Below are positions 3,323 to 21,442 of a stretch of 39,361 bases of DNA, piece by piece. The stretch lies in the NCBI GenBank assembly GCA_900474095.1, contig UCOA01000043.1:1-39361 (forward strand), written 5' to 3'. Source of the DNA: Hyphomicrobiales bacterium. GTDB lineage: Bacteria > Pseudomonadota > Alphaproteobacteria > Rhizobiales > Rhizobiaceae. The notes beneath the pieces are model-generated. The model did no database searches. It had not been told where the DNA came from and was given only the letters and a program-made list of their open reading frames with translations. Numbering within the stretch: the first letter of the stretch is position 1; each line of letters starts with the position of its first letter. The translations under genes and the position numbers were made by a program.

Positions 3323-4234
3323 CTAGCGCTCGAAGGGTTCACCGAGCGAGGCGACGCCGTTCAACTTGAGCAGGCGGCGGTCTGCCGAAATAATGCCGAG
3401 CACGATGATTGTAACGAGATAGGGCAGGCTCGAAAGCAGGGGGGAGGGAACGTCCAGTCCGGTCGCCTGGGCGGCAAGCCCCGTCAGGGAGACGGCGCCA
3501 AAGAGACAGGCCCCGAGAAATATCCGGCCGGTCAGCCATGTGCCGAAGACGACGAGTGCGATGGCGATCCAGCCGCGCCCGGCTATCATCCCGTCGGCCC
3601 AGAGCGGTGTGTAGATTACCGACGCATAAGCGCCGGCAAAACCGGCCATCGCCCCGCCGAACGCAATGGCGAGGATGCGGACCAAGATGACCGAATAACC
3701 GATGGCGTGCGCGGCCTTTGGGTTCTCCCCAACAGCCCGGACGACGAGACCGACCTTGGTGTAGGCAAACGTCGCCCAGATGGCGAGAGTGACGGCAAGG
3801 GAAAGCCACGCGACGACGTCCTGAATGAAAAGGCCGCCGACGACCGGGATTTCCGAAAGCCATGGAAAGGCAAACTTTGGAACCCCCTTGACCGTCAGGC
3901 TTTCATAGCTCTTTCCGAAAAGCGCTGACAGACCTTGGCCAAGGATGCCGATCGCAAGACCTGTCGCCACCTGGTTGGCCCGAAATCCGAGCGCGACGAA
4001 GGCGAAAATGAGGGAAAGGACTGCGCCGCCGAGGCCCGCGACGAGAAAACCGAGAAGATGCCCGCCGCCGTGATAGACGATGATGAAGGCGAGCACCGCG
4101 CCGAAAGCCATCAATCCCTCCACGCCGAGATTCAGAACCCCGGCGCGCTCGACCACCAGTTCGCCGAGAGCCGCAAGGAGAAACGGAGTGGCGGCCGCGA
4201 GCATGCCGGAAAGAATGAACTCGATGGCGTTCAT
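3323..4234 (-). CDS. BMP-family ABC importer permease (second subunit), operon B
   Basis: A 303-residue inner-membrane permease of the nucleoside/purine-type ABC family (YufQ/NupC-like, related to RbsC/BPD_transp_2). It is almost wholly hydrophobic, with the characteristic GALGELVVERAGVLNLG-like element near the start (seen as ALGELVVERAGVLNLGVEG, the conserved E-R-x-G-x-x-N-L-G motif) and the coupling segment VVRAVGENPKAAHAIG in the middle. The start ATG at 4234 overlaps the stop of the preceding permease by four bases (ATGA at 4231-4234), indicating translational coupling. Last gene of the minus-strand operon that begins at 11,507. Substrate inferred only from family: nucleosides, purines or related N-heterocycles. 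Confidence 0.92.
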   Translation of the reverse strand: MNAIEFILSGMLAAATPFLLAALGELVVERAGVLNLGVEGLMAFGAVLAFIIVYHGGGHLLGFLVAGLGGAVLSLIFAFVALGFRANQVATGLAIGILGQGLSALFGKSYESLTVKGVPKFAFPWLSEIPVVGGLFIQDVVAWLSLAVTLAIWATFAYTKVGLVVRAVGENPKAAHAIGYSVILVRILAIAFGGAMAGFAGAYASVIYTPLWADGMIAGRGWIAIALVVFGTWLTGRIFLGACLFGAVSLTGLAAQATGLDVPSPLLSSLPYLVTIIVLGIISADRRLLKLNGVASLGEPFER

Positions 4235-5331
4235 GGCCGGCTCCCGTAGGCGGTGCGGCGCCATTCGAGCCGATACCGCACAAAGGTGGCGGCGATGAGG
4301 TAGGCAAGCAGAAGGCTGCCCTGGAACACGCGCACCGCCGCGATCGGCAGGTTTGCCGACACCATCGCATTGTCCCCGCCGATATAGATAACGGACATGA
4401 AGAGGGCGGAGAAGACGATTCCGATCGGGTGCAGGCCACCGAGATAGGCGACGATAATCGCCGCGTAGCCGTAACCGGTCGAAATCGAGCGCTGCAACTG
4501 GCCCAGGGGACCCGCTACCTCGGCCGCACCGGCGAGCCCGGCGGCAAAGCCACCGATGAGGAGCGAAAGCCAGATCGCCCACCCTTCGTTGAAACCGGCA
4601 TAACCGGCAGCGCGCGGCGCGAGCCCGCCGACCTGGAGCTTGTAGCCGATGAAGCTCTTCTGCATGAAGACCCATGCCGCCATCGACAGGGCGAGTGTCA
4701 GGAGCAGTGAGACGTTGACGCGCGTCCCGGATATCAGCATCGGCACCATCGCGTCATACTGGAACATCACGGATTGGGGAAAATTGAAGCCGTTCGGGTC
4801 CTTCCAGGGGCCGAGGAGCAGGTAGTTGAGGAGTTGCGCGGCAACCAGGCTCAGCATCAGGGAAACGAGGATCTCGTTTGCATTGAGCCTGACGCGCCAA
4901 AATGCGGTTATCGAAGCCCATAGGGCGCCGCCTATGGCGCCAAGCAGTAGCATCACGGGCCAGATCCACTGGCCCGTTGCCTGCGGAAACCATACCGGGA
5001 TTGCGGAGGCGAATATCGCACCCAGAATGAACTGGCCCTCGGCCCCGATGTTGAAGACCTTCGCGCGAAAGCCGATTGCCAGGCCCTGTGCGATAAGGAG
5101 GAGAGGGCCTGTCTTCAGCAGTACCTCCGAGAATGACGCCCAGGAGAGGAAGGGCTCGAGAAGCATCGCATGGACGACTGCGACCGGATCGCGACCCATC
5201 AATATGTAGAGCCCGAGGTTGAGAATGGTGGCCACTGCCAGGGCGACGGGAGGCGCAAGCAGGGTTGCGGCAAGCGAGGCGCGTTCCCGGCGGATAAGGG
5301 TGGGAAGAAGAGCGGTGGGCAAAACGCTCAT
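4231..5331 (-). CDS. BMP-family ABC importer permease (first subunit), operon B
   Basis: A 366-residue inner-membrane permease of the YufP/NupB type. A cytoplasmic N-terminus of about 20 residues precedes a first membrane segment (LAATLLAPPVALAVATILNL). Family features include GLAIGFRAKVFNIGAEGQFI, the permease counterpart of the N-x-G-x-E-G element, and the C-terminal GYGYAAIIVAYLGGLHPIGI loop. It overlaps the ATPase gene upstream (ATGA at 5328-5331) and the second permease downstream (4231-4234), so the importer is translated as one coupled unit. Works with the ATPase at 5328-6851 and the binding protein at 6855-7955. Confidence 0.92.
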   Translation of the reverse strand: MSVLPTALLPTLIRRERASLAATLLAPPVALAVATILNLGLYILMGRDPVAVVHAMLLEPFLSWASFSEVLLKTGPLLLIAQGLAIGFRAKVFNIGAEGQFILGAIFASAIPVWFPQATGQWIWPVMLLLGAIGGALWASITAFWRVRLNANEILVSLMLSLVAAQLLNYLLLGPWKDPNGFNFPQSVMFQYDAMVPMLISGTRVNVSLLLTLALSMAAWVFMQKSFIGYKLQVGGLAPRAAGYAGFNEGWAIWLSLLIGGFAAGLAGAAEVAGPLGQLQRSISTGYGYAAIIVAYLGGLHPIGIVFSALFMSVIYIGGDNAMVSANLPIAAVRVFQGSLLLAYLIAATFVRYRLEWRRTAYGSRP

Positions 5332-6851
5332 GCGAGTGCCTTTTCGAGGGAAGAATGTGCGCCGATCATATACCGGCCGATCTCCTCGGGTTGCGTCTCG
5401 CGCGTGGCGAGCGGCGGACTCAGCCTGCCACGGTTAAGCACTTGAATGGTATCGCAGAGTTCGAAAAGCTCCTCGAGCTCCTCGGATATCACCAGGATGG
5501 CCATGCCTTCGTTGCGCAGCGTGATCAGTCGGCTGCGAATGGCGGTTGCAGCGCCGATATCGACGCCCCAGGTCGGCTGCGCCACGAAAAGCAGTTTTGG
5601 CGACAGCATCATCTCGCGTCCCACGATGAACTTCTGCAGGTTGCCGCCGGAGAGCGCGCCTGCCTCCGTATCGGGGCCGGGCGTGCGGACATCGTACTGG
5701 CGGATGCACTCGTTGGTGAACGCCCGCGCGCTTACCCTGTCGATGAGACCATGCCTGAGAAGTTTGAGCGGATGCGCCGTCAGCAGGCTGTTGAGGACGA
5801 GCGACATTTCGGGAACGGCGCCGCGTCCAAGCCGGTCTTCTGGAACGAAGGCAAAGCCAAGCTGCCGTCGGGTAGCGGCATCGAGCATGCCTACGTCCTT
5901 TCCCATCATGTAGATCCGGTCGCGCTGTTCTCGTGGCAGAACCGTCTCGCCGGAGATCAGGGAGGCAAGCTCGTTTTGCCCGTTTCCCGAAATCCCGGCG
6001 ATCCCGAGGATTTCGCCGGCGCGCACCGCAAGGCTGATGTTGGAGAGCGGGACGGCAAAGGGATCGTCGGGCCGATGATCGAGGCCGATGATCTCGAGCC
6101 GCTTTTCACCGCCGGCGTGTGGAAGCGCCGGCATGGGTTCCGGCATGTCGCGGCCGATCATCATGCGGGCAAGCTCATGGGCATCATGGTCGCGCGGGTC
6201 GACATTGCCGGTGACGCGTCCGCCGCGCAGGATCGTCGCGTGATCGCAGATTGCCCGAATTTCCTCCAGCTTGTGGGAGATGAACAGGATGGAAACGCCG
6301 CCATCGCGCAGGCGTCGCAAGGTGTCGAAGAGCCTGTCCACCGCCTGCGGCGGCAGCACGGAAGTTGGTTCGTCAAGGATCAGCAGCTTCGGACTGGTCA
6401 TCAGACATCGGATGATCTCCACCCGCTGCCTCTCGCCGACCGAAAGGGCATGTACATGGACGAGCGGATCGACTTCGAGGCCGAAGTCGCGACCAAGTGT
6501 GCGGATGCGTTCGGCAAGGTCGGCTTTGCCGCCTTTGACGACCAGGCGAATATTTTCTACGACCGTCAGGGTCTCGAAAAGCGAGAAGTGCTGAAAAACC
6601 ATGCTGATCCCCTTGCGCCTTGCTTCCGCGGGGGATGCAAGGCTTAAGGGGTCTCCATCCCAGACGAGGGTTCCGCCGTCCGGTTGCTCGACGCCGTAGA
6701 TCAGCTTCATCAGCGTCGACTTGCCCGCCCCGTTTTCTCCGAGGATCGCATGGATCGACTGCGAGGCCACGTCCAGATCGATACCCTGATTGGCGTGGAT
6801 CTGGCCGTAGCTTTTCGAAATGCCGCGGAGCGACAGGAGCGGGTTGGTCAT
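5328..6851 (-). CDS. BMP-family ABC importer ATPase (double nucleotide-binding domain), operon B
   Basis: A 507-residue tandem ATPase of the YufO/NupA/RbsA type that energises the adjacent permeases. The first half has a canonical Walker A (GENGAGKST, about residue 38), signature LSVGERQRVEI and Walker [12 protein letters not shown]. The second half has a non-canonical P-loop (GISGNGQNELASL), a good signature LSGGNLQKF and a Walker B altered to LLFVAQPTWGVD, the usual asymmetry of this subfamily. The start ATG at 6851 follows the binding protein stop by three bases. The gene ends in an ATGA overlap with the first permease. Confidence 0.94.
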   Translation of the reverse strand: MTNPLLSLRGISKSYGQIHANQGIDLDVASQSIHAILGENGAGKSTLMKLIYGVEQPDGGTLVWDGDPLSLASPAEARRKGISMVFQHFSLFETLTVVENIRLVVKGGKADLAERIRTLGRDFGLEVDPLVHVHALSVGERQRVEIIRCLMTSPKLLILDEPTSVLPPQAVDRLFDTLRRLRDGGVSILFISHKLEEIRAICDHATILRGGRVTGNVDPRDHDAHELARMMIGRDMPEPMPALPHAGGEKRLEIIGLDHRPDDPFAVPLSNISLAVRAGEILGIAGISGNGQNELASLISGETVLPREQRDRIYMMGKDVGMLDAATRRQLGFAFVPEDRLGRGAVPEMSLVLNSLLTAHPLKLLRHGLIDRVSARAFTNECIRQYDVRTPGPDTEAGALSGGNLQKFIVGREMMLSPKLLFVAQPTWGVDIGAATAIRSRLITLRNEGMAILVISEELEELFELCDTIQVLNRGRLSPPLATRETQPEEIGRYMIGAHSSLEKALA

Positions 6852-6854
6852 GGA

Positions 6855-7955
6855 TTACTTCGGCAGCGGCGTGGTAACGCCCTTGACGTGCCAGTCCATC
6901 GCGACGATCTCGCCATCGGCGAGCGCCGTACCGGCTGCCACCCCTTCGCTGCCGTCGGCCTTGATGATCGGCCCGGTGAAGGGCGAGAAGCTGCCGTCGG
7001 CGATCTTGGCCTCGATCTCCTTGATCTTCGTCATCATGTCAGCCGGAATATCCGGGTTCCAGTCCACCACCTCGACAACCTTGTCGGCGACGCCGAGAAA
7101 GGTATTGGCGCCCTTGAACGAGCCGGCGAAATGGGCGTCGACCGACGCTTTGAAGAAGGGCGACCAGTCCGTCGCGACGCAGCCGAGATAGGTTTTCGCG
7201 GCGTATTTCTTCATCGACGAGTTGAGATTGAAGGCGTAGACGCCCGCTTCCTCACAGGCTGCGATAACGGACGGTGTATCCTGCGCATTGGAGAAGATCA
7301 CGTCACAGCCTTGCGCCATCAGAGCCTTGGCGGCTTCCTGCTCCTTGGCCGGGTCGAACCAGGAGTTCACCCAGACGACCGCCACCTCGATTTTTGGGTT
7401 TACCGTTTGGGCGCCCAGCGTGAAGGCGTTGATGGAGGTGATCAGCTCGGGAATGGCGAAGGCGGCTACCGAGCCCAGCTTGCCGGTCTTGGAGAGTGAG
7501 GCGGCTGCCATGCCGAGCAGGTAGGTGCCCTGAAAATACTTGGCTGCGAAGGGCGAGAAGTTCGGAGCCCCCTGGAAGCCCGACGCATGAAGAACAGTCA
7601 CGCTCGGATCGCGGCGAGCGATCTGCAGGGCGCCGTTCTGATATCCGAAGGAGCCGGCGACCAGGAATTTGTTCCCGTCGGCGACCGTTTTGTTCATGAT
7701 GCGATCGGCATCTGGTCCTTCCGCGATGTTCTCGAGCACAGTCACCTTCACCCTGTCGCCGTAAGCGGCCTTGACCGGCTCGAGGCCGGCGGCAAGTGCG
7801 TGGCCCCAACCGACGTCGCCGACCGGCGACGGGATCACGAGGGTGATGCCGAGCGGTTCATCGGCCGCGATAGCGGACTGGCCGCCAAGTGCGCCGGCGA
7901 TGCCAGTGGCGGCAACGCCCTTCATCAGTGTTCTGCGCGTCAGGTTTGTCAGCAT
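6855..7955 (-). CDS. BMP-family substrate-binding protein, operon B
   Basis: A 366-residue periplasmic binding protein of the basic membrane protein (BMP/Med/PnrA) family. The N-terminus MLTNLTRRTLMKGVAATG carries a twin-arginine (RR-x-L-M-K) signal, so export by Tat is expected. The mature domain begins PLGITLVIPSPVGDVGWGHA, with the W-G-x-x-H feature of the fold, and includes the VIFSNAQDTPSVIAACEE segment facing the ligand cleft. A purine-rich AGGGGA precedes the ATG. It sits 24 bp after an amidohydrolase gene and directly before its ATPase and permeases. Family members bind nucleosides or purines; the ligand here is not determined. Paralogous to the binding protein at 17,654-18,784. Confidence 0.92.
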   Translation of the reverse strand: MLTNLTRRTLMKGVAATGIAGALGGQSAIAADEPLGITLVIPSPVGDVGWGHALAAGLEPVKAAYGDRVKVTVLENIAEGPDADRIMNKTVADGNKFLVAGSFGYQNGALQIARRDPSVTVLHASGFQGAPNFSPFAAKYFQGTYLLGMAAASLSKTGKLGSVAAFAIPELITSINAFTLGAQTVNPKIEVAVVWVNSWFDPAKEQEAAKALMAQGCDVIFSNAQDTPSVIAACEEAGVYAFNLNSSMKKYAAKTYLGCVATDWSPFFKASVDAHFAGSFKGANTFLGVADKVVEVVDWNPDIPADMMTKIKEIEAKIADGSFSPFTGPIIKADGSEGVAAGTALADGEIVAMDWHVKGVTTPLPK

Positions 7956-7979: not shown

Positions 7980-9365
7980 CTAGAATTCTACCGTTGCGAG
8001 AGCGGCCTCGGCATCGGCAAACAGCTTGGCCTCGTCGAGACCGGCGAATTCGCCCTTCTGCCAGACGATGCGGCCATTGATCATGGTCATGTCGGTCGGC
8101 ATGCCTATTCCGACCTTGGCGATCAGGCTCAGCGGATCGTGCCGCGTGCCCACGTAGTCCATGCGCCGCGTGTCGATTGCAAAGAGGTCGGCGGCCATGC
8201 CGGGGGCTAGCCGGCCGATGTCATGCCGGCCGAGAAGGCTTGCGCCACCTGTCGTGGCATAGCTCAGGAAGTCGACCGGGGGCGGGACCGGATGCGTGCG
8301 CGTCGAGACCACGAGGCACTGCAGCATGTAGGCGGAATGGATGCAGTGCATCAGGTTCGAATTGTCGTTTGATGCCGCTCCGTCGCAGCCGAGACCGACA
8401 CGCAGTCCAAGCGCCGACATTGCCGGGATATCGGTGACCTCGGCGCCGACCAGATAGATCGGCTCTGGGCAGTGCGACACGCCAGTGCCGCTGGCCGCCA
8501 TTTTCCTCAGCTCGTCGTGGGTCAACTCCCAGCAATGGGCGTAGAAGGCGTCGGGGCCGGCGAAGCCAAGCTCTTCGCAGTAGTCGACTGTGCGCATGCC
8601 ATGTCGGGCCTGAATGACCGGGCTTTCGCCCTCACCCACATGCGTGTGCATCTGCACGCCGCGATCGCGCGCCAGTGCCACTGATTCCACGAAGGTCTCG
8701 CGATAGCAGTTGACCGGCTGGCAGGGCGCGACCACGACCTGTCGCATGCTGAAGGGGCTGGCATCGTGGTAGCTGTCGATCAGGCGGGCGCAATCGGCGA
8801 TAAACTCGTCGGTCGTTTCCAGCATGGCGTCCGGAATGGTCGAGCCTTCGGACTTCGGCAACGTATTGCCGCCGCGCCCGGCATGGAAACGCATGCCGAG
8901 AAGCTCGGCCGCCTCGAACTGACGATCGATCAGCCGTTTTCCGGCGTGCCGCGGGAAGCAATATTGATGATCGAAGGCCGTGGTACAGCCGTGCTTGATC
9001 ATCTCGGCCATCGCCGTGACGGAGGCGTGGTAGAAGCAATCCTCGTTGAGCCGCGAGAAGATCGGATAGATGCGGTCGAGCCATTCGATGACCGAGAGCT
9101 TCGTCCAGTCAAGATCGGCGCGGTTGCGCACGAGGCACTGGAAGAAATGATGGTGCGTATTGACGAGGCCGGGATAGACAAACCAGCCGGTGGCGTCCTG
9201 CGTGATCGTGCCAGCGGGCAGCGCGCTTGCCCCGAGATTTTCGCCGACTGCCTGGATCGCCGGGCCGTTCGTCAGGAGGTCGACGTTACGATTGACGGTC
9301 GGACCCTTGCCCTCGTCGACGATGACTGCCGCGCAATTCTTCAGAAGGTAGCCGGCCATCGTCAC
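7980..9365 (-). CDS. Amidohydrolase (ATZ/TRZ-like, 8-oxoguanine/guanine deaminase relative)
   Basis: A 461-residue metal-dependent hydrolase of the amidohydrolase superfamily, cytoplasmic, probably a deaminase or dechlorinase-type hydrolase of an N-heterocycle. Metal ligands visible: NTHHHFFQ (H71/H73), MHTHVGEGES (His, and the Glu that usually shuttles protons), the His of YAHCWEL, and the Asp of GLGCDGAASNDNSNL. The H-H-H-F-x-Q and GCDGxAS(N)D motifs place it with the 8-oxoguanine deaminase/AtzB group. However, the substrate loop that usually reads HCPSSN reads HCPEPIYL here, so specificity is probably different. It overlaps the GST-like gene by ATGA (9362-9365) and precedes the BMP binding protein, tying it to import of the same compound. 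Confidence 0.85.
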   Translation of the reverse strand: MTMAGYLLKNCAAVIVDEGKGPTVNRNVDLLTNGPAIQAVGENLGASALPAGTITQDATGWFVYPGLVNTHHHFFQCLVRNRADLDWTKLSVIEWLDRIYPIFSRLNEDCFYHASVTAMAEMIKHGCTTAFDHQYCFPRHAGKRLIDRQFEAAELLGMRFHAGRGGNTLPKSEGSTIPDAMLETTDEFIADCARLIDSYHDASPFSMRQVVVAPCQPVNCYRETFVESVALARDRGVQMHTHVGEGESPVIQARHGMRTVDYCEELGFAGPDAFYAHCWELTHDELRKMAASGTGVSHCPEPIYLVGAEVTDIPAMSALGLRVGLGCDGAASNDNSNLMHCIHSAYMLQCLVVSTRTHPVPPPVDFLSYATTGGASLLGRHDIGRLAPGMAADLFAIDTRRMDYVGTRHDPLSLIAKVGIGMPTDMTMINGRIVWQKGEFAGLDEAKLFADAEAALATVEF

Positions 9366-10021
9366 ACCTTGCCCGGTTCGATATGGGGTTCGGGCTTCAA
9401 TTCATGCAACCGGTGGATGCCCGGCATCTCGATGAAATTTTCGAGGCTGCGGAGCGCGCGGGACCACAGCCGGATCGCCGGGTAGGGGTCGAGCGAGACG
9501 CCGCCGTCCGGCGCGAGCACCACGTAGGGGAAGCAGGCAATGTCGGCGACTGTCGGCCGGTCCGACGCGAGGAACCCCATGCCGTGAAGGCCCTGCTCGA
9601 CCAGACCGGCTTCCAGCTCGCGAAGCGACGCGATACCCTGGCTCTGCAGCGCGCCAAAGTCGCCCGGACGCAGGAGCATTTCGTGAAGCCGGGCGCCGCC
9701 AAGGCTTGCTGTCAGCCGGCTGGAGAACGAGAGCCACTGCTGGACGCGAGCCGTTTCCTCCGCGCCGCCGCTGCCCAGCCACGAGGGGGCCACCTTTGCG
9801 GCGAGATAGACGAGCATGGCCGAGGATTCGGTCAGGATCAGGTCTCCGTCCTCAAGGATCGGAATAGAGCCTGCGGGATTGAGCGCCAGGAGCTCCTGGC
9901 CGCGGTGCTCGGCGCCGGGGTGGAAATCGACCGGGCGGATATCGAGTTTCACACCGGTCAGCGCCGCCATCAGGCGCACTTTGTAGCAACTGGGCGAAAG
10001 GATGTAATCGTAGAGCTTCAT
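9362..10021 (-). CDS. Glutathione S-transferase-like protein (possible NdmE-type structural subunit)
   Basis: A 219-residue protein with a complete GST fold. The N-terminal thioredoxin-like domain (KLYDYILSPSCYKVRL, candidate active-site S9/S11/C12 as in zeta/theta classes) contains the cis-Pro element GSIPILEDGDLILTES, which closes the glutathione site. The C-terminal helical domain includes PTVADIACFPYVV, the N-capping motif. It overlaps the oxygenase gene upstream and the amidohydrolase downstream by ATGA (10,018-10,021 and 9,362-9,365). In the NdmCDE methylxanthine demethylase a GST homologue (NdmE) holds a Rieske-less oxygenase to its Rieske partner. The same gene neighbourhood here suggests that role rather than detoxification; this is inference. 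A conventional GST or maleylacetoacetate isomerase-like enzyme remains possible. Confidence 0.85.
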   Translation of the reverse strand: MKLYDYILSPSCYKVRLMAALTGVKLDIRPVDFHPGAEHRGQELLALNPAGSIPILEDGDLILTESSAMLVYLAAKVAPSWLGSGGAEETARVQQWLSFSSRLTASLGGARLHEMLLRPGDFGALQSQGIASLRELEAGLVEQGLHGMGFLASDRPTVADIACFPYVVLAPDGGVSLDPYPAIRLWSRALRSLENFIEMPGIHRLHELKPEPHIEPGKV

Positions 10022-10842
10022 TGCGCCACCAGCTGTGCGCCGTATGTATAGTTGCGGCGTTTCAGCCAGCGTCGGTAGGCGACCGAAGTCAGGTCGGCCC
10101 GCGTCGGAATTTCCATCCCGGGATCGAGCGGCAGGAGCCTCGGGATTTGGTTTTCAAGGATCGACCGGTCCTGAAGGAAGATAGTCTGCTGAAAGTGAAT
10201 GAGGTCAGTCATTGAAGTCGTGTCGTCGAAGAGTGCCATCCACGGCCAGACGTCGCACAGATCTTCGGCGAGCGGCTGCACGAAGAGGGTGATGACGTCC
10301 CATTCGCTCGGGCGCGGCGGGCAGGTCTTGTAGAGAACCGAGCACGTCGGTGCCGGCACGCGGTAGATGTATTCCGTCGTGATGCCACCGCTGGCCGATT
10401 TGGCAGCCTGCGGCTGGTAGAATTTCACTTGAGTGGCCCAGACCTCGTCTTCTCGGATTTCGACCTTGTAGTTCTGGACCTCCGTGTGCGGCTCCGCCCC
10501 AAGGAGGTCGGTGTGCACGAAGGGAAAATGTGCGATGTCGAGAAAATTCTCCACCGCGCGCAACGGCGAGCAGCGCACGCGAACCACGCCGACGTCGACG
10601 AACCGGCGGCCGGGCTGGTCAGCCTCGGGAATAGCGAAAAGCGCCTTTTGCGGGGTGCCGAGGGAGGACCAGACGTGGCCGTAGCGGACACATGCGGGTA
10701 AGGCGCGCCCATTTCCGCCCGTCACTTTCGCATTGCCTTCGGCGTCGCGCGCGACGTCGATCGGCTCCCCCATCAAAGCGGTTCTGCGTCCGACAGCGTC
10801 GAGCTGACTGAAAAGGCCGACCGGATACCACTCGTCGATCAT
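10018..10842 (-). CDS. Rieske-less non-haem-iron oxygenase (NdmC-like catalytic subunit)
   Basis: A 274-residue protein holding the catalytic domain of a Rieske ring-hydroxylating oxygenase/N-demethylase but no Rieske cluster. The mononuclear iron motif is clear: VENFLDIAHFPFVHTD (Asn, Asp and two His spaced as in the VanA/caffeine demethylase group), with the third carboxylate probably in FLQDRSILENQ near the C-terminus. The first about 60 residues (EWYPVGLFSQLDAVGRR, then the strand EPIDVARDAEG) resemble the start of a Rieske domain, but both C-x-H and C-x-x-H motifs are gone. I chose the ATG at 10,842 because it gives the ATGA overlap used throughout this operon and starts just before WYPV; an ATG at 10,857 adds five residues. 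It must receive electrons from another protein, and the Rieske protein encoded just upstream is the obvious candidate. Confidence 0.85.
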   Translation of the reverse strand: MIDEWYPVGLFSQLDAVGRRTALMGEPIDVARDAEGNAKVTGGNGRALPACVRYGHVWSSLGTPQKALFAIPEADQPGRRFVDVGVVRVRCSPLRAVENFLDIAHFPFVHTDLLGAEPHTEVQNYKVEIREDEVWATQVKFYQPQAAKSASGGITTEYIYRVPAPTCSVLYKTCPPRPSEWDVITLFVQPLAEDLCDVWPWMALFDDTTSMTDLIHFQQTIFLQDRSILENQIPRLLPLDPGMEIPTRADLTSVAYRRWLKRRNYTYGAQLVAQ

Positions 10843-11507
10843 CGCGTTGTGCTCCATGGTGCGAGCCCTTTCGCCTGAATATCTTCGGCCGTCCGCCTCA
10901 AGGTCTCGGCGGCTCGTGACGCGGCAATGCGCTGGGCCGGACTGCTGTCGCCCGGCACCAGGACATGGATCAATGTCTCGTACCCTTCCTGCGGGACGGA
11001 AAGCAGTCGGATTTCCGGAGCGCCCGGCGCCGGCCAGTCAAGGCCTGCCGTACCTGCCGTGGCGCCGGTCGCGGCCTTAAGTGTTGCAAGGTCTGCATGG
11101 GCCGTCAGGGAGCGGAGCGGAACGAAGCCCTCGAACCGCGGTGGCTCGGCCGTCGTCTCCCCAACAGCAACCCAGATCACTCCCCAGGCTTCTTCGACTG
11201 CGTGGGCCGCGACCCGAATTGTTTCCGGCGGTGTGAGGCCCGGATGCGCTGGGATGCGAAGGCATTCTCCGGTCTGGCCATAGCTCCAGCCGTGATAGAT
11301 GCAGGATAGGGCCTCGCCACGCACAAAGCCATGAGACAAGCGCATGCCGCGATGCGGACAGCGGTCGGCGGAAGCTGTCACGCGCCCCGACTGTGTACGC
11401 CAGAGGGCAATGGATCCGGCGGGTATCCTTGCCGGCATCACGGTTCCGGCCGGCAAATCCGCGCAAAGGGCGACTGGCGTCCAACAGCCCGTCATGTCGC
11501 ACAACAT
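10839..11507 (-). CDS. Rieske [2Fe-2S] protein, partner of the Rieske-less oxygenase
   Basis: A 222-residue protein with an intact Rieske domain in its N-terminal half: CPHRGMRLSHG (C50/H52) and CIYHGWSYG (C69/H72), the four ligands of the cluster. Residues after about 115 (roughly FVPLRSLTAHADLATL to the end) resemble a shortened, degenerate oxygenase domain: it ends RIAASRAAETLRRTAED like the last helix of such enzymes but has no His/His/Asp iron site. It is thus the mirror image of the next gene, which has the iron site but no cluster, and overlaps it by four bases. Together they could form one functional oxygenase. First gene of operon B; no strong Shine-Dalgarno is visible before the ATG at 11,507, and an ATG at residue 5 is an alternative. 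No reductase gene lies nearby. Confidence 0.85.
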   Translation of the reverse strand: MLCDMTGCWTPVALCADLPAGTVMPARIPAGSIALWRTQSGRVTASADRCPHRGMRLSHGFVRGEALSCIYHGWSYGQTGECLRIPAHPGLTPPETIRVAAHAVEEAWGVIWVAVGETTAEPPRFEGFVPLRSLTAHADLATLKAATGATAGTAGLDWPAPGAPEIRLLSVPQEGYETLIHVLVPGDSSPAQRIAASRAAETLRRTAEDIQAKGLAPWSTTR

Positions 11508-11664: not shown

Positions 11665-11934
11665 CTATATGATTTCCCCGTCGACAGGTGCGCGGTCGAT
11701 CGTCTCGACCCAGACCTCTATGGGTCCGAGCGAGCATCCCATCTCCATCATATCGATCAACTCCACGGGTCCGGCAAGCTCGATCTCGATTCGGTCGGAA
11801 CTCGTATGGGCAATCGCCTGCACGAGACCGAGCTTTGTGGCATAGCGCCGAATCCAGGGTACGAAGGACGCGGAATTGAGGTCGCCGCGGATCGTCATCC
11901 GCTCCCGGAAGTGGCATTGATATTGTTCCGTCAT
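11665..11934 (-). CDS. Acylphosphatase-like small protein lacking the catalytic Arg
   Basis: An 89-residue protein whose whole length matches the acylphosphatase ferredoxin-like fold. A strand with IRGDL sits where the G-x-V-Q-G phosphate loop belongs, followed by a helix FVPWIRRYATKLGL, a strand pair ending IEIELAGP, a helix DMMEMGCSLGP and a final strand EVWVETI. The canonical F-R at the end of the phosphate loop is F-V here (SASFVPW), and the catalytic Asn position is not evident, so normal acylphosphatase activity is doubtful. Start ATG at 11,934 preceded by GAGG. It is the last gene of operon A, 22 bp after the decayed amidase. A binding or accessory role in ureide metabolism is conceivable but unproven. 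Confidence 0.7.
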   Translation of the reverse strand: MTEQYQCHFRERMTIRGDLNSASFVPWIRRYATKLGLVQAIAHTSSDRIEIELAGPVELIDMMEMGCSLGPIEVWVETIDRAPVDGEII

Positions 11935-11956: not shown

Positions 11957-12261
11957 TCATGACCTACAGCATAGCGCCTGAGTAAGCTTGCGGAAGGGTA
12001 ATCGGCTCAAGGCTTTGCGGCAATCGCGGAGAGTGTCCCGGTCCATACGTACCCGGAGCGGGTTGGCCACCGGGTCGAAGGGGCCAAGTTTCACGGCTTC
12101 CGCGAGCAAGGCCAGCTGGTCCGCGAGATACGCAGAAAGATGTCTGGATCGGCGACGGTCTCGATGCGGGCGAACACGGTTTCAATCGTTTCCGAAACCG
12201 GCCATCCCGCAGCATAGGCGGCATGCATCGAGCCGATGTCGAATGGCTGATTATCAGTCAT
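11957..12261 (-). pseudogene. Truncated, frameshifted amidase (allophanate-hydrolase-like)
   Basis: The ATG at 12,261 overlaps the cupin stop by ATGA and begins MTDNQPFDIGSMHAAYAAGW, then the helix ETIETVFARIETVADPDIFL, which is the N-terminal pattern of amidase-signature enzymes such as allophanate hydrolase (AtzF). After RISR (around 12,121) the frame is lost; a shift by one base restores the family-like DQLALLAEAVKLG then PFDPVANPL. There the sequence breaks off: the expected G-(V/I)-PF-x-VKDN segment and the whole Ser-Ser-Lys catalytic region (several hundred residues) are missing, and about 33 unrelated residues lead to a stop at 11,957. The gene is therefore dead. If the assignment is right, hydrolysis of allophanate to ammonia and CO2 must come from another locus. 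Confidence 0.75.
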
Positions 12262-12611
12262 GCCGGTTCCTCTTGCAGTATTTTTACCAGCCGGTCCCAT
12301 TGGATCAGCACGACGCAGCCCGTGTCGCTCCAGACCGAATGCTCGGTGCCTTCCTTGTTTACGACGAGGCTGCCCGGGCCATAGTCGCCCGCTTCGTCCG
12401 ACTGAGTGCCTTCGAGCACAAGGATGGTTTCGAGCCCCATGTGCCGATGGCGCGGCACGGAAGCGCCAGCCTCATATTTCAACAGCGCCACGCCAGGCTG
12501 ATCGCCTTCGAAAGGCTGGATCCAGTGGATCGTCACCTCGTCGCGGAATGGTTCGAAGGACAGTGTCCGCCATCCTCCGGTCGTCAAACTTTCACGCGTC
12601 GTTTCAGGCAT
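12258..12611 (-). CDS. Cupin-domain protein (ChrR-like cupin)
   Basis: A 117-residue single-domain cupin. The first cupin motif is seen as PRHRHMGLETILVLEG (metal ligands His/His/Glu) and the second as GSLVVNKEGTEHSVWS, giving a complete metal-binding barrel of the ChrR C-terminal type. It overlaps the preceding cysteine hydrolase gene by eight bases and the decayed amidase by four, so it belongs to operon A. Function is not known: an enzyme acting on a small nitrogenous metabolite or a metal-dependent sensor are both possible. No DNA-binding or anti-sigma domain is attached. Confidence 0.85.
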   Translation of the reverse strand: MPETTRESLTTGGWRTLSFEPFRDEVTIHWIQPFEGDQPGVALLKYEAGASVPRHRHMGLETILVLEGTQSDEAGDYGPGSLVVNKEGTEHSVWSDTGCVVLIQWDRLVKILQEEPA

Positions 12612-13272
12612 GAGCGATCCCCTCCATTATGGCGTCCACCGAAGCGACCCAGCCGACGATGGCGCCCTGGGCTATGATCATCGCGATCGCCGCCTGCTTG
12701 AATTGGGGAAAATAACTCTCGGTTGCCTCCTCGGCGAGCAGGCATTCATAGCCGCGGTCGTTGGCCTCCCTCATCGTCGTCTGGACGCAAACTTCGGTGG
12801 TAACTCCGGCAAAGACGAGTTGCTCGATACCGCGCGCCTTGAGAATGTCTTCAAGCGGGGTGGCATAGAAGGCGCCCTTGCCGGGCTTCTCGATGACGAT
12901 TTCGCCGTCGATCGGAGCCACTTCGGAAAGGATCGCGGTTCCGGGCTCACCTGCTATCAGTACCCGGCCCATCGGCCCTTCGTCGCCGATCTTCAAGGCC
13001 GGATTGCCGCGATTGCGCTTGGCAGAGGGCAGATCGGAGAGGTCGGGGCGATGGCATTCCATGGTGTGGATGACCGGCAGGCCCGCTTCGCGAAATCCCG
13101 CGATCAGCCGCTTGACGTCCGGCACGATCCTGGTGACCCGGCTGACATCGTTGCCGAGGCTGGCACCGAAGCCGCCGGGCTCGGCGAAGTCGCGCTGCAT
13201 GTCGATGACGACAAGGGCGAGCTTGTCCCGCCTTAGCGGAAAGGCAAACGGTTCGGCCTTGATCTCGGCCAT
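12604..13272 (-). CDS. Isochorismatase-fold cysteine hydrolase (biuret/triuret hydrolase-like)
   Basis: A 222-residue cysteine hydrolase with the family triad visible: D24 in VVIDMQRDF, K129 in IEKPGKGAF and C162 in GVTTEVCVQTT, plus the helix [14 protein letters not shown] typical of ureide-cleaving members. It is clearly related to the biuret-hydrolase-like protein at 14,819-15,532 but diverged, lacking the aromatic-rich N-terminal extension. Enzymes of this branch act on biuret, triuret, ureidoacrylate and N-carbamoyl compounds. With a biuret hydrolase already in the operon, triuret or another N-carbamoyl compound is a reasonable substrate guess (inference). Start ATG at 13,272 shares its last base with the stop of the ATPase gene (TGATG), indicating coupling. 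Confidence 0.88.
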   Translation of the reverse strand: MAEIKAEPFAFPLRRDKLALVVIDMQRDFAEPGGFGASLGNDVSRVTRIVPDVKRLIAGFREAGLPVIHTMECHRPDLSDLPSAKRNRGNPALKIGDEGPMGRVLIAGEPGTAILSEVAPIDGEIVIEKPGKGAFYATPLEDILKARGIEQLVFAGVTTEVCVQTTMREANDRGYECLLAEEATESYFPQFKQAAIAMIIAQGAIVGWVASVDAIMEGIAHA

Positions 13273-14822
13273 CAGTGATGTCCTGCCATATGGGCGCCGA
13301 TGACCCCAATGTCGGCCGACAGCGCCGGAGTTTCATAGACCAGCTTGCCGTCCGACATCACCATGATGCGGTCCGACATTTCCAGCAGTTCGTCGAGATC
13401 CTCCGAGAGAAGCAGAACGGCGGTGCCGGAATTGCGCGCCCTCATAATGCGGGCGCGGATTTCGGCGACGGCCGAAAAGTCGAGTCCAAAGCAGGGGTTG
13501 GAGACGATCAGGAGATCGACATCGCCGGTCAACTCGCGGGCAAGCACGGCGCGCTGGACGTTGCCGCCGGAAAGAGAGGCGATAGGTGAGGAATGGGACG
13601 CCGTCTTCACCTTGAAGTCCGAGATCAGCGAGGCCGCGCGCTTGCGCATCGATTTCATGTCGAGCCAGAGGGCATCGCCGCCCTGTTTCTTTACATCGAA
13701 GGTGCGGAAGGCGAGATTTTCCGTCACCGTCATTTTAGGTGCGCAGGCGTTGTTCAGCGGCTCTTCCGGGATGAACCGGACGTTGTTGATGCGTGTTTCC
13801 TGCCGTGTGGCGCCGTAGAGTAAGCCTTTCACGGTGATGCTGCCCGCTTCCGGCGGGCGCTGACCGGCGAGAACTTCGGCAAGCTCCTTCTGGCCGTTGC
13901 CCGAAATGCCGGCGATGCCGACGATCTCGCCGGCATGGACAGTCAGGTTGCCGATATCGATCATCTTCAGGCCGGTGCGATCCGGTGCCTTGATGTCGCT
14001 GATGACGAGGATCGGCTTGGCATCGGCTGGTACCGGCAGGCGGGTGTCGAGCTCGGCAAGCTTGACGTCACCGATCATCATCGAGGCCATATCCTTGGTA
14101 GAGAGGTCCTTGACCAGCCCGCTGCCCGCCATCTTGCCGCGCCGGAGGACGGTCACGGCGTCGGCGAACTTCGTCACTTCGTGGAACTTGTGGCTGATCA
14201 TCAGGACGGTGAGTTCCCCGCGCTCTGTCATGCCGCGCACGAGGCCGAGCATCTCGTCGGCTTCGGCCGGGGTGAGCACCGACGTCGGTTCGTCGAGGAT
14301 GAGGAAGCTGCGTCCGAGATAGAGCTGCTTGACGATTTCGAGTTTCTGCTTCTCGCCTGCCGCAAGCTCGCTCACCGACCGGTCGAGTGGGATCTTGAAA
14401 GGCATGCGCTCCATGAAGGTTGCAAGGTCCTTGCGTTCCTTCGCCCAGTTGATGATGGCTGGCACATGCGCGCGGTTGATCACGAGGTTTTCGGCGCCGG
14501 TCAGCGACGGTACCAGCGTGAACTGCTGGTAGACCATGCCGAGCCCGTAGGTCGCGGCATCTTTCGGGGATTGCACCGACACCTCATGGCCGTCGACCGA
14601 GAGCGAGCCGGAAGTCTGGTGGTAGAAGCCCATGATGCATTTGACGAGCGTGGACTTGCCGGCGCCGTTTTCGCCGAGCAGTGCGTGGAAGGTGCCGGCC
14701 GGAATGTCGATCGAGACATTGTCGAGTGCTGTAAAGCTGCCGAAGTGCATGGTCATGCCGACCGTCTGGATGCCGACGGCCTTGCCGGCCCTGGGCAACG
14801 GTGTGTCGCGGATCTGGATCAT
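13272..14822 (-). CDS. BMP-family ABC importer ATPase (double nucleotide-binding domain), operon A
   Basis: A 516-residue tandem ATPase homologous to that at 5328-6851. The N-terminal half has Walker [10 protein letters not shown], signature [11 protein letters not shown] and Walker [13 protein letters not shown]. The C-terminal half has the modified P-loop [13 protein letters not shown], signature [11 protein letters not shown] and a degenerate Walker B ([13 protein letters not shown], acidic residue replaced by Asn). The ATG at 14,822 ([11 protein letters not shown]) gives a four-base overlap with the biuret-hydrolase-like gene; a longer reading to 14,954 would overlap that gene by over 130 bases and is rejected. 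Unusually, the ATPase lies between two hydrolase genes instead of beside its permeases. Confidence 0.93.
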
Positions 14823-15532
14823 GGCAATTGCCTCACGAGCTTTTCGGAGTTCGAGACGGAGCCAAAGACGCCGCCCTGCATTTTCACCATCTTGATGGCT
14901 GCCAGATGATTGCCGTAGTCCGTGGCACCGCAGCAGTCCTCGAGAAGAAGGCATTCGAAACCGCGGTCGTTTGCCTCGCGCATGGTGGTGTGGACGCAGA
15001 CATCGGTGGTGATGCCGGTGAGGATGATGTTTTCGATGCGCTTCTGGTTGAGGATCAGTTCCAGATCGGTGGCGCAGAAGGATCCCTTGCCGGGCTTGTC
15101 GATGATCGTCTCGCCTTCGATCGGGTAGAGTTCGTCGATGATGTCCCAGCCGGGTTCGCCGCGTACCAGGATGCGGCCGCAGGGTCCGAAGTCGCCGATG
15201 CCGGCATTGATCCGCCGCGAGCGCCAGCGCTTGTTGGCGGGCAGATCGGCGAGGTCGGGCCGGTGGCCTTCGCGCGTGTGGATGATGTGGTAACCTTTGG
15301 CGCGCATGGCGGCGAGCACCTTTTTGATCGGATCGATCGGGGCGCGCACCAGCGAGAGGCTGTATCCCATGTGATCGACATAACCGCCGGGCCCGCAGAA
15401 ATCCGTCTGCATGTCGATGATGATCAGCGCGGTGTTGTCTGGACGCAGGACGCCGTTATAGGGCCAGGGGTAGGGGTCGGCGTCGATGTAGCTCAGGTTT
15501 TCGCCGGTTGCGGTTGCGGCAAGAGTGGTCAT
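14819..15532 (-). CDS. biuH: Biuret amidohydrolase (isochorismatase-fold cysteine hydrolase)
   Basis: A 237-residue cysteine hydrolase predicted to cleave biuret to allophanate and ammonia in the cytoplasm. The triad is at D40 ([10 protein letters not shown]), K146 ([10 protein letters not shown]) and C179 ([11 protein letters not shown]). From memory the Rhizobium leguminosarum biuret hydrolase has its triad at D36, K142 and C175, a constant offset of four, and shares the opening [11 protein letters not shown] and the C-terminal [15 protein letters not shown]. The resemblance along the whole length is very close, but I could not run an alignment. Start ATG at 15,532; a longer reading to 15,751 would overlap the permease. 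It is 11 bp after the permease stop and overlaps the ATPase by ATGA, so hydrolase and importer are co-expressed and the importer may carry biuret or a precursor. Confidence 0.88.
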
Positions 15533-15543
15533 GGCCGGATATC

Positions 15544-16473
15544 CTATTTCGTGATCGACAGGGCGCCGGGTGCGCCTGCGAGCGAGCGGGTGGGCGAGGA
15601 AGTGGCGACGAGGATGACGAGGGTGAGGACGTAAGGGGCGGCATAGAAGAGGTAGTAGCCCTGCGTGACGCCGACCGATTGCAGGGCAGGACCGAGAGCG
15701 CCGGCGCCGCCGAAGAGCAGGGCGGCAAGGAAACAGCCGATCGGATTCCACCGGGCGAAGATGACAAGTGCGACGGCCATCAGGCCCTGGCCCGACGAGA
15801 TGCCTTCGTTCCAGGAGCCGGGATAGAACAGGGAGAGATAGGCGCCGCCGACCGCTGCGAGCGAGCCGCCGACGGCGGTTGCAAGCAGGCGTACGCTATC
15901 CGGATTGAGACCCATGGCGCGGGCCGCGTCGGAGCTGTCGCCGACCACACGCAGGACGAGGCCGACGCGGGTGTTCTTGAAGGCCCACCAGAGCATCACC
16001 GAGAGGAGCCCGCCGATGATGAAGAGCACGTTGATGTTCAGCGCCGACTGGATCTGCGGCAAGTCCGACCAGCCGCCGAGCGGAATGGATGGGAGATGCG
16101 GCGCGACGGGCTGGATGAAGGGCTTGCCGAGGAAGAACGCGAGGCCGAGGCCGAATTGCATCATGGCAATGCCGATGGCGATGTCGTTGACCTTCGGGAA
16201 TTTGCAGATAAAGCCATGGATGAGGCCGAAGACGGCGCCGGTCGCCATGGCGGCGAAAACGCCGAGCCAGGGCGAATTGCTCATAACGGCGATGGCATAG
16301 GCCGTCATAGCGCCGAAGACGAGAGTACCTTCGAGGCCGAGATTGATGCGGCCGGAGCGCTCGGTGATCGATTCCCCGAGGCTGACGAAGATGAAGGGGG
16401 TGGAGACGCGGATCGCGCCTGCGAAGATGGCGAGCGGGACGCCCCAGATGCCGATGCCGGCTTCGTCCATCAC
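15544..16473 (-). CDS. BMP-family ABC importer permease (second subunit), operon A
   Basis: A 309-residue polytopic inner-membrane permease of the YufQ type. It contains the conserved [19 protein letters not shown] element near residue 35 (E-R-x-G-x-x-N-L-G) and the coupling segment [16 protein letters not shown]. It overlaps the first permease by ATGA (16,470-16,473) and is followed after 11 bp by the biuret-hydrolase-like gene. It pairs with the permease at 16,470-17,636 to form the channel driven by the ATPase at 13,272-14,822. It is divergent enough from the operon B permease that the two importers probably carry different ligands. Confidence 0.92.
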
Positions 16474-20680: not shown

Positions 20681-21442
20681 TCACGATGCTGCTGCGAGCG
20701 ATGCGGCGTTCTTGTTCACAGCCGCCGAGACGACTGCGCCGAATTCCTCGACTGCCTTCTCGCCATAGTCACCCGCGCGGGCACGTCCGGCGAGGACTAG
20801 ATCGACGTCGACAATGCCGATCCATCCGAGGACCTGACGGAGGTACCCGCTGGCCAGGTTGTACTGCTCGACTGGAGAACCGGGAGAGAAATCTCCGCCA
20901 GTTGCGAGGATGATGTTCGCCTTCTTGCCGGTCAAAAGGCCCTTGTTGTCGGCGGACACCGTCACGCCAACGCGGACAATATGGTCGATGTAGGCCTTGA
21001 GAACGGCCGGAATGGAAAAGTTGAACATCGGCGTGCCAATGAGAATCTGGTCCGCTGACTTCAGCTCAGCGACAAGATCGTCCGACACCTTGATGGCCGC
21101 GGTCGCCTCCGGTGAATGCGTTTCGGCGGGCGTGAACGCACCCATGATCCACGGAAGGTCAACGAATGGGAGGTTAGTCTTCATCAGATCGCGGACGATA
21201 ACGTCGCCGCCTGGATTTTCGGCTTTCCAGCGGTCGATGAAGACTGCGGTCAGCTTGCGGGAGGTAGAATAGTCATATCGAGGGCTGGCCTCAATCACGA
21301 GGAGAGTGGGCATGTTGGACCTTTGCTTCGGAAGTTTTGACACGACTGCGGTCGCTGGAGGTTGAGGCTCCGGCCTGAACAGACGGACCACCTTGTCGAT
21401 CCATCGGCTCGATGATGCTTTTGTGTATTCTCGCTCAGCCAT
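20681..21442 (-). CDS. FMN-dependent NADH-azoreductase (AzoR-like flavodoxin-fold oxidoreductase)
   Basis: A flavodoxin-fold quinone/azo reductase. FMN-binding features are LLVIEASPRYDYSTSRKL at the phosphate site, GTPMFNFSIPAVLKAYIDHI (close to the AzoR P-M-x-N-F-x-I-P motif) and ATGGDFSPG. From the ATG at 21,442 it has 253 residues, 43 more than usual; an in-frame ATG at 21,313 (MPTLLVIEASP) would give the standard 210. Neither start has a strong ribosome site, so the N-terminal extension (DKVVRLFRPEPQPP) is uncertain. It reduces quinones or azo compounds with NADH in the family. Divergent from the LysR gene, a typical electrophile- or quinone-responsive pair. Confidence 0.85.
   Translation of the reverse strand: MAEREYTKASSSRWIDKVVRLFRPEPQPPATAVVSKLPKQRSNMPTLLVIEASPRYDYSTSRKLTAVFIDRWKAENPGGDVIVRDLMKTNLPFVDLPWIMGAFTPAETHSPEATAAIKVSDDLVAELKSADQILIGTPMFNFSIPAVLKAYIDHIVRVGVTVSADNKGLLTGKKANIILATGGDFSPGSPVEQYNLASGYLRQVLGWIGIVDVDLVLAGRARAGDYGEKAVEEFGAVVSAAVNKNAASLAAAS

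What the first reader, a model, noticed from the sequence alone, without database searches (positions are those of the whole stretch)
9362..11507. Complementary split Rieske oxygenase with a GST homologue: an NdmCDE-like system
Three genes joined by four-base overlaps encode a Rieske protein with the cluster (C50/H52, C69/H72) but no iron site, an oxygenase with the iron site (H-x4-H in AHFPFVHTD) but no cluster, and a complete GST. Established: in the Pseudomonas putida caffeine pathway, the Rieske-less oxygenase NdmC works only with a Rieske domain supplied by NdmD and with the GST homologue NdmE as scaffold. Here the Rieske function is a stand-alone 222-residue protein whose C-terminal half looks like a dead oxygenase domain, so both partners appear to be decayed copies of a full-length oxygenase that now need each other. 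Inference: a heteromeric N-demethylase or ring hydroxylase for a purine-like substrate.
Basis: partly seen in the sequence, partly recalled or inferred. Interest (0 to 1): 0.85.

Follow-up and report, generated by a model that had tools for sequence, protein, structure and literature searches.

The report
Split Rieske oxygenase with helper proteins
In soil bacteria, an enzyme normally made as one chain is encoded as two damaged halves that appear to need each other, together with two look-alikes of unrelated enzymes, in an operon that probably imports and breaks down an unusual purine-like molecule.

Summary
RSK (10839-11507, -) has the Rieske cluster motif and no iron site; OXY (10018-10842, -) has the iron site and no cluster; a GST follows (9362-10021, -). 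All 80 named close relatives of OXY that were kept carry RSK-OXY-GST in that order, and the cluster and iron ligands are kept in 81 of 81 sequences. It resembles NdmCDE but differs: NdmD fuses its Rieske domain to a reductase; here RSK stands alone, with no such reductase found in the window. Trees of both partners separate the two kinds, with two outlying loci. Context (deaminase-like hydrolase in 70 of 80, BMP importer; related clusters with guanine and adenine deaminases, xanthine dehydrogenase, or NdmA/NdmB homologues) points to a purine-like substrate, most likely N-demethylation. Substrate, complex and reductase are untested.

The parts
11665..11934 (-). ACYLP: 89-aa acylphosphatase-fold protein, both catalytic positions replaced (V25 for Arg, H43 for Asn)
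   Evidence: Homologues annotated acylphosphatase in L039, L040, L055, L059; Pfam Acylphosphatase at its cut-off (20.7 and 23.7 bits for two homologues, cut-off 22.5); Arg 0 of 79 and Asn 0 of 79; found in 78 of 80 named loci
10839..11507 (-). RSK: stand-alone Rieske [2Fe-2S] protein, 222 aa, with a reduced oxygenase-like C-terminal half
   Evidence: Pfam PF00355; ligands 81 of 81; model pLDDT 92.9; Foldseek to GxtA/SxtT
10018..10842 (-). OXY: oxygenase with D102, H105, H110, D225 and a Rieske remnant without cluster ligands, 274 aa
   Evidence: Pfam VanA_C; ligands 81 of 81; model pLDDT 83.3; Foldseek TM 0.81-0.86 to GxtA/SxtT
9362..10021 (-). GST homologue, 219 aa
   Evidence: Pfam GST_N, GST_C_2; in 80 of 80 named loci
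7980..9365 (-). AMIDO: amidohydrolase of the 8-oxoguanine deaminase / TRZ-ATZ group, 461 aa
   Evidence: NCBIfam 8-oxoguanine deaminase 374 bits, cut-off 532; best solved relative 7ww2; strong homologue in 70 of 80 named loci
6855..7955 (-). BMP-family substrate-binding protein of an ABC importer
   Evidence: Pfam Bmp E 1.1e-39; matched in 74 of 80 named loci
5328..6851 (-). ABC importer ATPase
   Evidence: ORF; 86% identical to the ATPase at the same place in L039, which is annotated
4231..5331 (-). ABC importer permease 1
   Evidence: 89% identical to the permease at the same place in L039
3323..4255 (-). ABC importer permease 2
   Evidence: 89% identical to the permease at the same place in L039
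12604..13272 (-). Neighbouring operon: triuret-hydrolase-like enzyme (TrtA), context only
   Evidence: best solved relative 6xix, 273 bits, deposited as cysteine hydrolase (that 6xix is TrtA is recalled); BiuH model 245 bits, below its cut-off of 370
14819..15487 (-). Neighbouring operon: biuret amidohydrolase (BiuH), context only
   Evidence: NCBIfam BiuH 418 bits, cut-off 370 (on the longer ORF 14819-15751)

Best explanation
A heteromeric Rieske oxygenase split over two genes. Shown by sequence and models: RSK carries only the [2Fe-2S] cluster motif, OXY only the mononuclear iron site with its bridging Asp, and each is a reduced copy of a whole Rieske oxygenase. Inferred: they assemble like the trimer of a normal Rieske oxygenase, RSK taking the place of the neighbouring subunit that brings its cluster about 12 A from the iron, with the GST (as NdmE is thought to do) and probably the dead acylphosphatase-like protein as non-catalytic assembly or docking parts. 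Electrons come from NADH through a reductase encoded elsewhere. Substrate (inferred from context): an imported purine-like heterocycle, probably carrying an N-methyl and, where AMIDO is present, an amino group, for example a methylguanine; OXY removes the methyl group as formaldehyde and AMIDO the amino group, the order being open.
For: RSK-OXY-GST order in 80 of 80 named loci; ligands 81 of 81. Models align with full-length Rieske oxygenases; OXY keeps a Rieske N-terminal remnant. The OXY and RSK trees agree: stand-alone clade of 31 rows (100/97) in OXY and of 26 rows (94/91) in RSK, fused loci outside. Intermediate arrangements exist: RSK-OXY-GST followed by a separate reductase and a BMP importer (L052, L175). 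In Komagataeibacter nataicola from a kombucha culture, two sets of Rieske protein, OXY and GST and one VanB-type reductase sit beside homologues of NdmA (559 bits) and NdmB (434 bits). Other stand-alone systems adjoin adenine deaminase, guanine deaminase (412 bits, cut-off 375) and xanthine dehydrogenase genes. NdmC depends on the NdmD Rieske domain and on NdmE (passages in the reviews PMC4408171 and PMC10380055).
Against: No complex model or biochemistry. No dedicated reductase found: of 7 matches to the L052 reductase in the own genome, 5 lie on contigs with another Rieske protein, 1 belongs to a dimethylamine-monooxygenase-like cluster and 1 is a short weak match. No formaldehyde-handling gene was recognised in the operon. 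AMIDO is below the 8-oxoguanine deaminase cut-off and is not found as a strong homologue in 10 of 80 named loci; in at least 8 of these 10 the sequence goes on by several kb past the GST, so deamination is not an obligate companion. HHalign of the RSK C-terminal half to the OXY catalytic part is weak (probability 7-24). Two stand-alone loci (L176, and one of the two sets of L056) fall outside the stand-alone clade. The GST of this clade mostly keeps a Glu-Ser pair (E65 69 of 81, S66 73 of 81) that GSTs of fused loci do not keep, so it may not be a mere scaffold.
Confidence: 0.6

Rival explanations
1. Same split enzyme, but it hydroxylates the purine ring instead of demethylating it: for example guanine to 8-oxoguanine, which AMIDO then deaminates to urate.
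For: AMIDO is nearest to 8-oxoguanine deaminase. Rieske oxygenases annotated as molybdenum-cofactor-independent xanthine hydroxylase subunit HpxD are distant relatives of OXY in Klebsiella and Pantoea.
Against: The two HpxD hits listed are only 25.5 and 29% identical over 78 and 62% of OXY, while NdmC-type systems share the architecture; AMIDO falls below the 8-oxoguanine deaminase cut-off (374 of 532 bits) and is missing in 10 of 80 loci.
Confidence: 0.2
2. The substrate is an s-triazine or a related amino/N-alkyl heterocycle that ends in cyanuric acid, triuret or biuret.
For: TrtA- and BiuH-like genes lie upstream in the window; cyanuric acid hydrolase and an isochorismatase-family hydrolase lie about 11-12 kb beyond the end of the operon on pRL10; AMIDO is related to triazine hydrolase.
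Against: A strong BiuH (69% identity or more) occurs in 19 of the 39 genomes with a close OXY but within 25 kb of it in only 4 of 39 (counted by hand). Among 80 named loci (up to 8 kb each side) a BiuH-like match was seen in one, at 25%. TrtA paper: triuret and cyanuric acid can themselves arise by chemical oxidation of uric acid (passage in PMC7948467).
Confidence: 0.08
3. RSK is a ferredoxin-like electron carrier for other oxygenases of the cell, and OXY is a decaying enzyme without function.
For: Stand-alone Rieske ferredoxins exist in three-component systems (recalled; weak matches to ferredoxin-subunit families).
Against: OXY is strongly conserved in the 80 named loci (64-94% identity to the window, iron ligands 81 of 81) and RSK stands next to it in 80 of 80; the RSK model extends into a reduced oxygenase fold.
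Confidence: 0.05

Closest known systems
NdmCDE, 7-methylxanthine N7-demethylase of Pseudomonas putida CBB5 (passages in the reviews PMC4408171 and PMC10380055; primary paper not held)
   Same: Rieske-less oxygenase, Rieske cluster on another polypeptide, GST homologue, purine context
   Different: NdmD fuses the Rieske domain to an NADH reductase. Here the Rieske protein is free, no such reductase was found in the window, and a dead acylphosphatase-fold protein is added; the two kinds form separate branches in both partner trees with two outlying loci. The CBB5 proteins themselves were not in these trees.
SxtT / GxtA, full-length Rieske oxygenases (solved structures; saxitoxin oxygenases by their titles)
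   Same: Nearest solved relatives of both halves by sequence (RSK 93 bits, OXY 84 bits) and by fold
   Different: One chain holds both centres (target lengths 311-329 residues); no GST or acylphosphatase-fold partner is known to me (recalled, not searched)
NdmA / NdmB methylxanthine demethylases
   Same: Same superfamily; homologues sit in the same cluster as two split systems in K. nataicola
   Different: Full-length enzymes with cluster and iron in one chain

Membership tests
NdmCDE | Oxygenase with iron site and no Rieske cluster | tested here: met
   Pfam and ligand conservation
NdmCDE | Rieske cluster supplied by a separate polypeptide encoded nearby | tested here: met
   RSK adjacent in 80 of 80 named loci; that it supplies the cluster is inferred
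NdmCDE | That polypeptide is a Rieske-reductase fusion (NdmD) | tested here: not met
   RSK is 222 aa with only a Rieske family match; no plant-type ferredoxin or NAD-binding reductase family among the 30 window ORFs scanned; an FMN-azoreductase-like protein (20681-21442) and a pyridine-nucleotide-disulphide-oxidoreductase-like protein (34638-36047) are there, matched to no oxygenase-reductase family
NdmCDE | GST homologue encoded with the oxygenase | tested here: met
NdmCDE | GST needed for solubility and activity; 3:3:3 complex | not testable with these tools
   needs co-expression; only single chains could be predicted
NdmCDE | N7-demethylation of 7-methylxanthine | not testable with these tools
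   needs an assay
NdmCDE | OXY groups with NdmC | tested here: inconclusive
   OXY lies in a starred clade of stand-alone systems, loci with NdmD-type fusions outside; CBB5 NdmC was not included
VanA-type Rieske oxygenase | Rieske cluster and mononuclear iron in one chain | tested here: not met
Acylphosphatase (ACYLP) | Catalytic Arg and Asn (recalled) | tested here: not met
   Arg 0 of 79, Asn 0 of 79; of 18 RSK-linked sequences, window included, Arg in 1 and Asn in 0, while an ordinary acylphosphatase at L178:2718 has both
8-oxoguanine deaminase (AMIDO) | NCBIfam equivalog cut-off | tested here: not met
   374 bits against 532
Biuret amidohydrolase (14819-15487) | NCBIfam equivalog cut-off | tested here: met
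   418 bits against 370 (longer ORF)

The most novel reading that the evidence does not exclude
A four-protein Rieske oxygenase in which two complementary broken oxygenases are held together by two pseudo-enzymes recruited from unrelated folds (a GST and an acylphosphatase), the latter doing for the free Rieske protein what the fused reductase does in NdmD, for instance docking a reductase supplied in trans. It would be a widespread, unrecognised route for purine-derivative use in rhizobia and other alphaproteobacteria, and one Rieske protein and GST can apparently serve two different oxygenases.
Probability: 0.35. Interest if true: 0.78.

Novelty: new variant of a known kind. Interest (0 to 1): 0.62.

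Why it matters
A review calls NdmCDE very unique: the first reported Rieske oxygenase whose Rieske domain is split off onto the reductase and the first that needs a GST-like protein (passage in PMC4408171). These data suggest that it is one branch of a wider family, that a free-Rieske branch is well spread in rhizobia and Rhodobacterales, and that this branch carries an extra dead acylphosphatase-fold protein. That offers a natural system, split into separate genes, for asking how cluster-to-iron electron transfer is organised across subunits, why a GST is needed, and what purine derivatives root-associated bacteria consume.

Tried and rejected
Dedicated reductase in trans: 7 matches to the L052 reductase in the own genome. 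Five lie on contigs that also carry a Rieske protein (C203, C155, C140, C226, C126). The one on C214 turned out to be beside DmmA-like and HODM (dimethylamine / N-demethylase) genes, and a match to it at E 1e-70 occurs in only 17 of the 39 genomes with a close OXY. The one on C105 is a 72-residue match at E 4e-6 near a contig start and was not followed. None is a good candidate; the reductase stays unknown.

Cyanuric acid / triuret pathway as the general context: rejected as general, see rival 2.

RSK C-terminal half by profile alone: weak, so I rested the claim on the fold search, where TM normalised by RSK length exceeds what residues 1-117 (53% of the chain) could give. I did not see which residues Foldseek aligned.

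Ambiguities: the family-wide count (109 of 394) includes full-length oxygenases at the weak end; I use the 39 genomes at 61% identity or more, counted by hand from its table. In the OXY tree six rows picked up as OXY are full-length oxygenases (L056_oxy1, L056_oxy4, L057_oxy1, L171_oxy2, L173_oxy1, L187_oxy1) and are ignored; the program warns of long branches, also where the Rieske-less rows join the rest. Three Rieske-less rows (L050, L187_oxy2, and L051_oxy3) have no adjacent Rieske gene or lie apart. In the RSK tree I left out full-length rows before building. Of the 12 fused loci, L174 joins the Rieske domain to a plant-type ferredoxin domain only, without a recognised NAD-binding domain; L043 was checked as a full fusion by Pfam, the others by length and blast. 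Labels of second oxygenases (L042, L169, L179, L180, L182, L184) rest on RSK in the neighbouring stretch of the same contig; for L184 (G160) I saw a GST but not RSK itself. Alignments A3 and A4 used 71 and 53 of 81 sequences. Of the 10 named loci without a strong AMIDO, L110 ends just after the GST and L137 soon after; what follows the GST was scanned in L100, L118, L135, L137, L138 and L139 and gave no common substitute (ABC ATPase in L118 and L135).

Literature: searches, in the open library only. None of the titles and abstract starts listed describes the free-Rieske arrangement; Rieske with acylphosphatase and GST and the split-Rieske phrases gave no paper. I did not read most of the listed papers, and the primary NdmCDE paper is not held, so I cannot say that it is not in print. 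For PMC4408171 and PMC10380055 I saw passages; for PMC7948467 the abstract with the start of the text, section 17 and passages; the rest as search listings.
Full report
What is there. On the minus strand the window holds, in transcription order, a short acylphosphatase-fold gene (ACYLP, 11665-11934), a Rieske protein (RSK, 10839-11507), an oxygenase (OXY, 10018-10842), a GST homologue (9362-10021), an amidohydrolase (AMIDO, 7980-9365) and a BMP-type ABC importer (6855-7955, 5328-6851, 4231-5331, 3323-4255). RSK matches only Rieske families and OXY only oxygenase C-terminal families in Pfam. The cluster ligands of RSK and the iron ligands and bridging Asp of OXY are kept in 81 of 81 sequences (ligand roles recalled).

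Conservation. All 80 carry RSK, OXY and GST in this order; ACYLP was found in 78 of 80, upstream of RSK (not in L083 and L101); AMIDO is there as a strong homologue in 70 of 80. Of the 10 without it, two end near the GST and at least eight run on for several kb, so the ACYLP-RSK-OXY-GST core, not AMIDO, is the constant unit. By record title they are mostly rhizobia and Rhodobacterales. In 394 sampled genomes of the window's family, 39 have a match at 61% identity or more (counted by hand).

Both halves are reduced oxygenases. OXY residues 2-40 match the first strands of the Rieske domain of RSK (hhalign probability 92, P 6.5e-7; GST and AMIDO controls 0.2), and the OXY model (pLDDT 83.3, under 50 at 107-119 and 146-151) covers full-length GxtA/SxtT with TM 0.81-0.86. 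The RSK model (pLDDT 92.9) has a beta-alpha-beta-beta-beta-alpha unit after its Rieske domain. Against GxtA/SxtT it scores TM 0.67-0.77 by its own length, more than the 0.53 its Rieske half could give, so the C-terminal half follows the oxygenase fold too. Profile comparison of that half with OXY is weak (probability 7-24), but it matches the linker of NdmD-type proteins (probability 88).

Two branches. Among distant relatives I found loci where the Rieske domain is fused onward (12 loci: NdmD-like, with L174 fused to a ferredoxin domain only) and loci where it stands alone. In the OXY tree the Rieske-less oxygenases form one clade (55 rows, 100/99, with a long-branch warning) and the window lies in a 31-row clade (100/97) made only of stand-alone loci; two stand-alone rows, L176 and one of L056, fall outside. 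The RSK tree gives the same split, 26 rows stand-alone (94/91) against 12 fused rows plus one very long L056 row (90/84), with L176 in neither. L052 and L175 have a separate reductase gene next to RSK-OXY-GST, an intermediate arrangement. In five genomes, G178, G393, G268, G163 and G765, the stretches fetched show one RSK and one GST in the same purine cluster as two different OXY genes.

A fourth, unnoticed part. With an HMM from 79 ACYLP sequences, none of 12 fused loci has one, whereas 17 of 18 further stand-alone loci with RSK do (three to four of these are window-type; L169 and L170 count as one; the miss is L176). In most it sits directly upstream of RSK; in L052 and L175 it follows the importer genes and in L054 it is on the other strand. 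The positions of the catalytic Arg and Asn (recalled) hold neither residue in 79 of 79; among 18 RSK-linked sequences, window included, Arg occurs once (L053) and Asn never, while an ordinary acylphosphatase found in the same search has both. So it looks like a pseudo-enzyme tied to the free Rieske protein. Its role is unknown; docking or assembly is my inference.

GST. In the window's clade position 65 is Glu in 69 of 81 and 66 is Ser in 73 of 81. In 11 of the 12 fused loci where the script caught the stretch no GST has this Glu; most read Asp-Ala. The glutathione-binding meaning is recalled.

Substrate. AMIDO is nearest to 8-oxoguanine deaminase but below the family cut-off. Other stand-alone clusters hold guanine deaminase, adenine deaminase and xanthine dehydrogenase genes. 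In Qingshengfaniella three genes separate the operon from allantoinase. In K. nataicola from a kombucha culture two split systems and a VanB-type reductase lie beside an NdmA and an NdmB homologue, which looks like a methylxanthine pathway with NdmD broken into parts; one of its two Rieske proteins has lost a cluster Cys. Together these favour a purine-like substrate and N-demethylation over ring hydroxylation, without proof. TrtA- and BiuH-like genes upstream are near OXY (within 25 kb) in only 4 of 39 genomes.

Known or new. Reviews state that NdmC needs NdmD and NdmE, and that 18 organisms with ndmCDE-like clusters were noted, others predominantly Sinorhizobium and Mesorhizobium (passages in PMC4408171; PMC10380055). 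The present system shares the principle but not the Rieske-reductase fusion, and adds ACYLP. I file it as a new variant of a known kind.

Noticed in passing
window 12258-15487 (-): TrtA-like triuret hydrolase and BiuH biuret hydrolase with a second BMP-type ABC importer and a ChrR-like cupin (12258-12611): probably an operon for triuret/biuret nitrogen.
   Followed up: partly
L056 8784-9317 and 7966-8787: Kombucha isolate plasmid: a 177-aa Rieske protein that has lost one cluster Cys, beside a Rieske-less oxygenase annotated as hypothetical, a GST and a VanB-type reductase.
   Followed up: partly
L178/L179, L180/L181, L182/L183, L169/L170, L041/L042: Purine clusters with one stand-alone Rieske protein and one GST but two Rieske-less oxygenases about 13-17 kb apart.
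   Followed up: partly
L174 7104-8360 (-): A Rieske domain fused to a plant-type ferredoxin domain without a recognised reductase domain, beside a Rieske-less oxygenase and a GST: a third arrangement.
   Followed up: no
window 9362-10021 (-): The GST of this clade mostly keeps a Glu-Ser pair at 65-66 that GSTs of fused loci do not keep, so it may still bind glutathione (motif meaning recalled).
   Followed up: partly
L195 8240-13565: Elsewhere in the own genome: GcvT-like, DmmA-like, reductase, haem-dependent oxidative N-demethylase-like and FMO-like genes, probably methylamine use.
   Followed up: no
window 22925-23950 (+): IS1595-family transposase gene.
   Followed up: no
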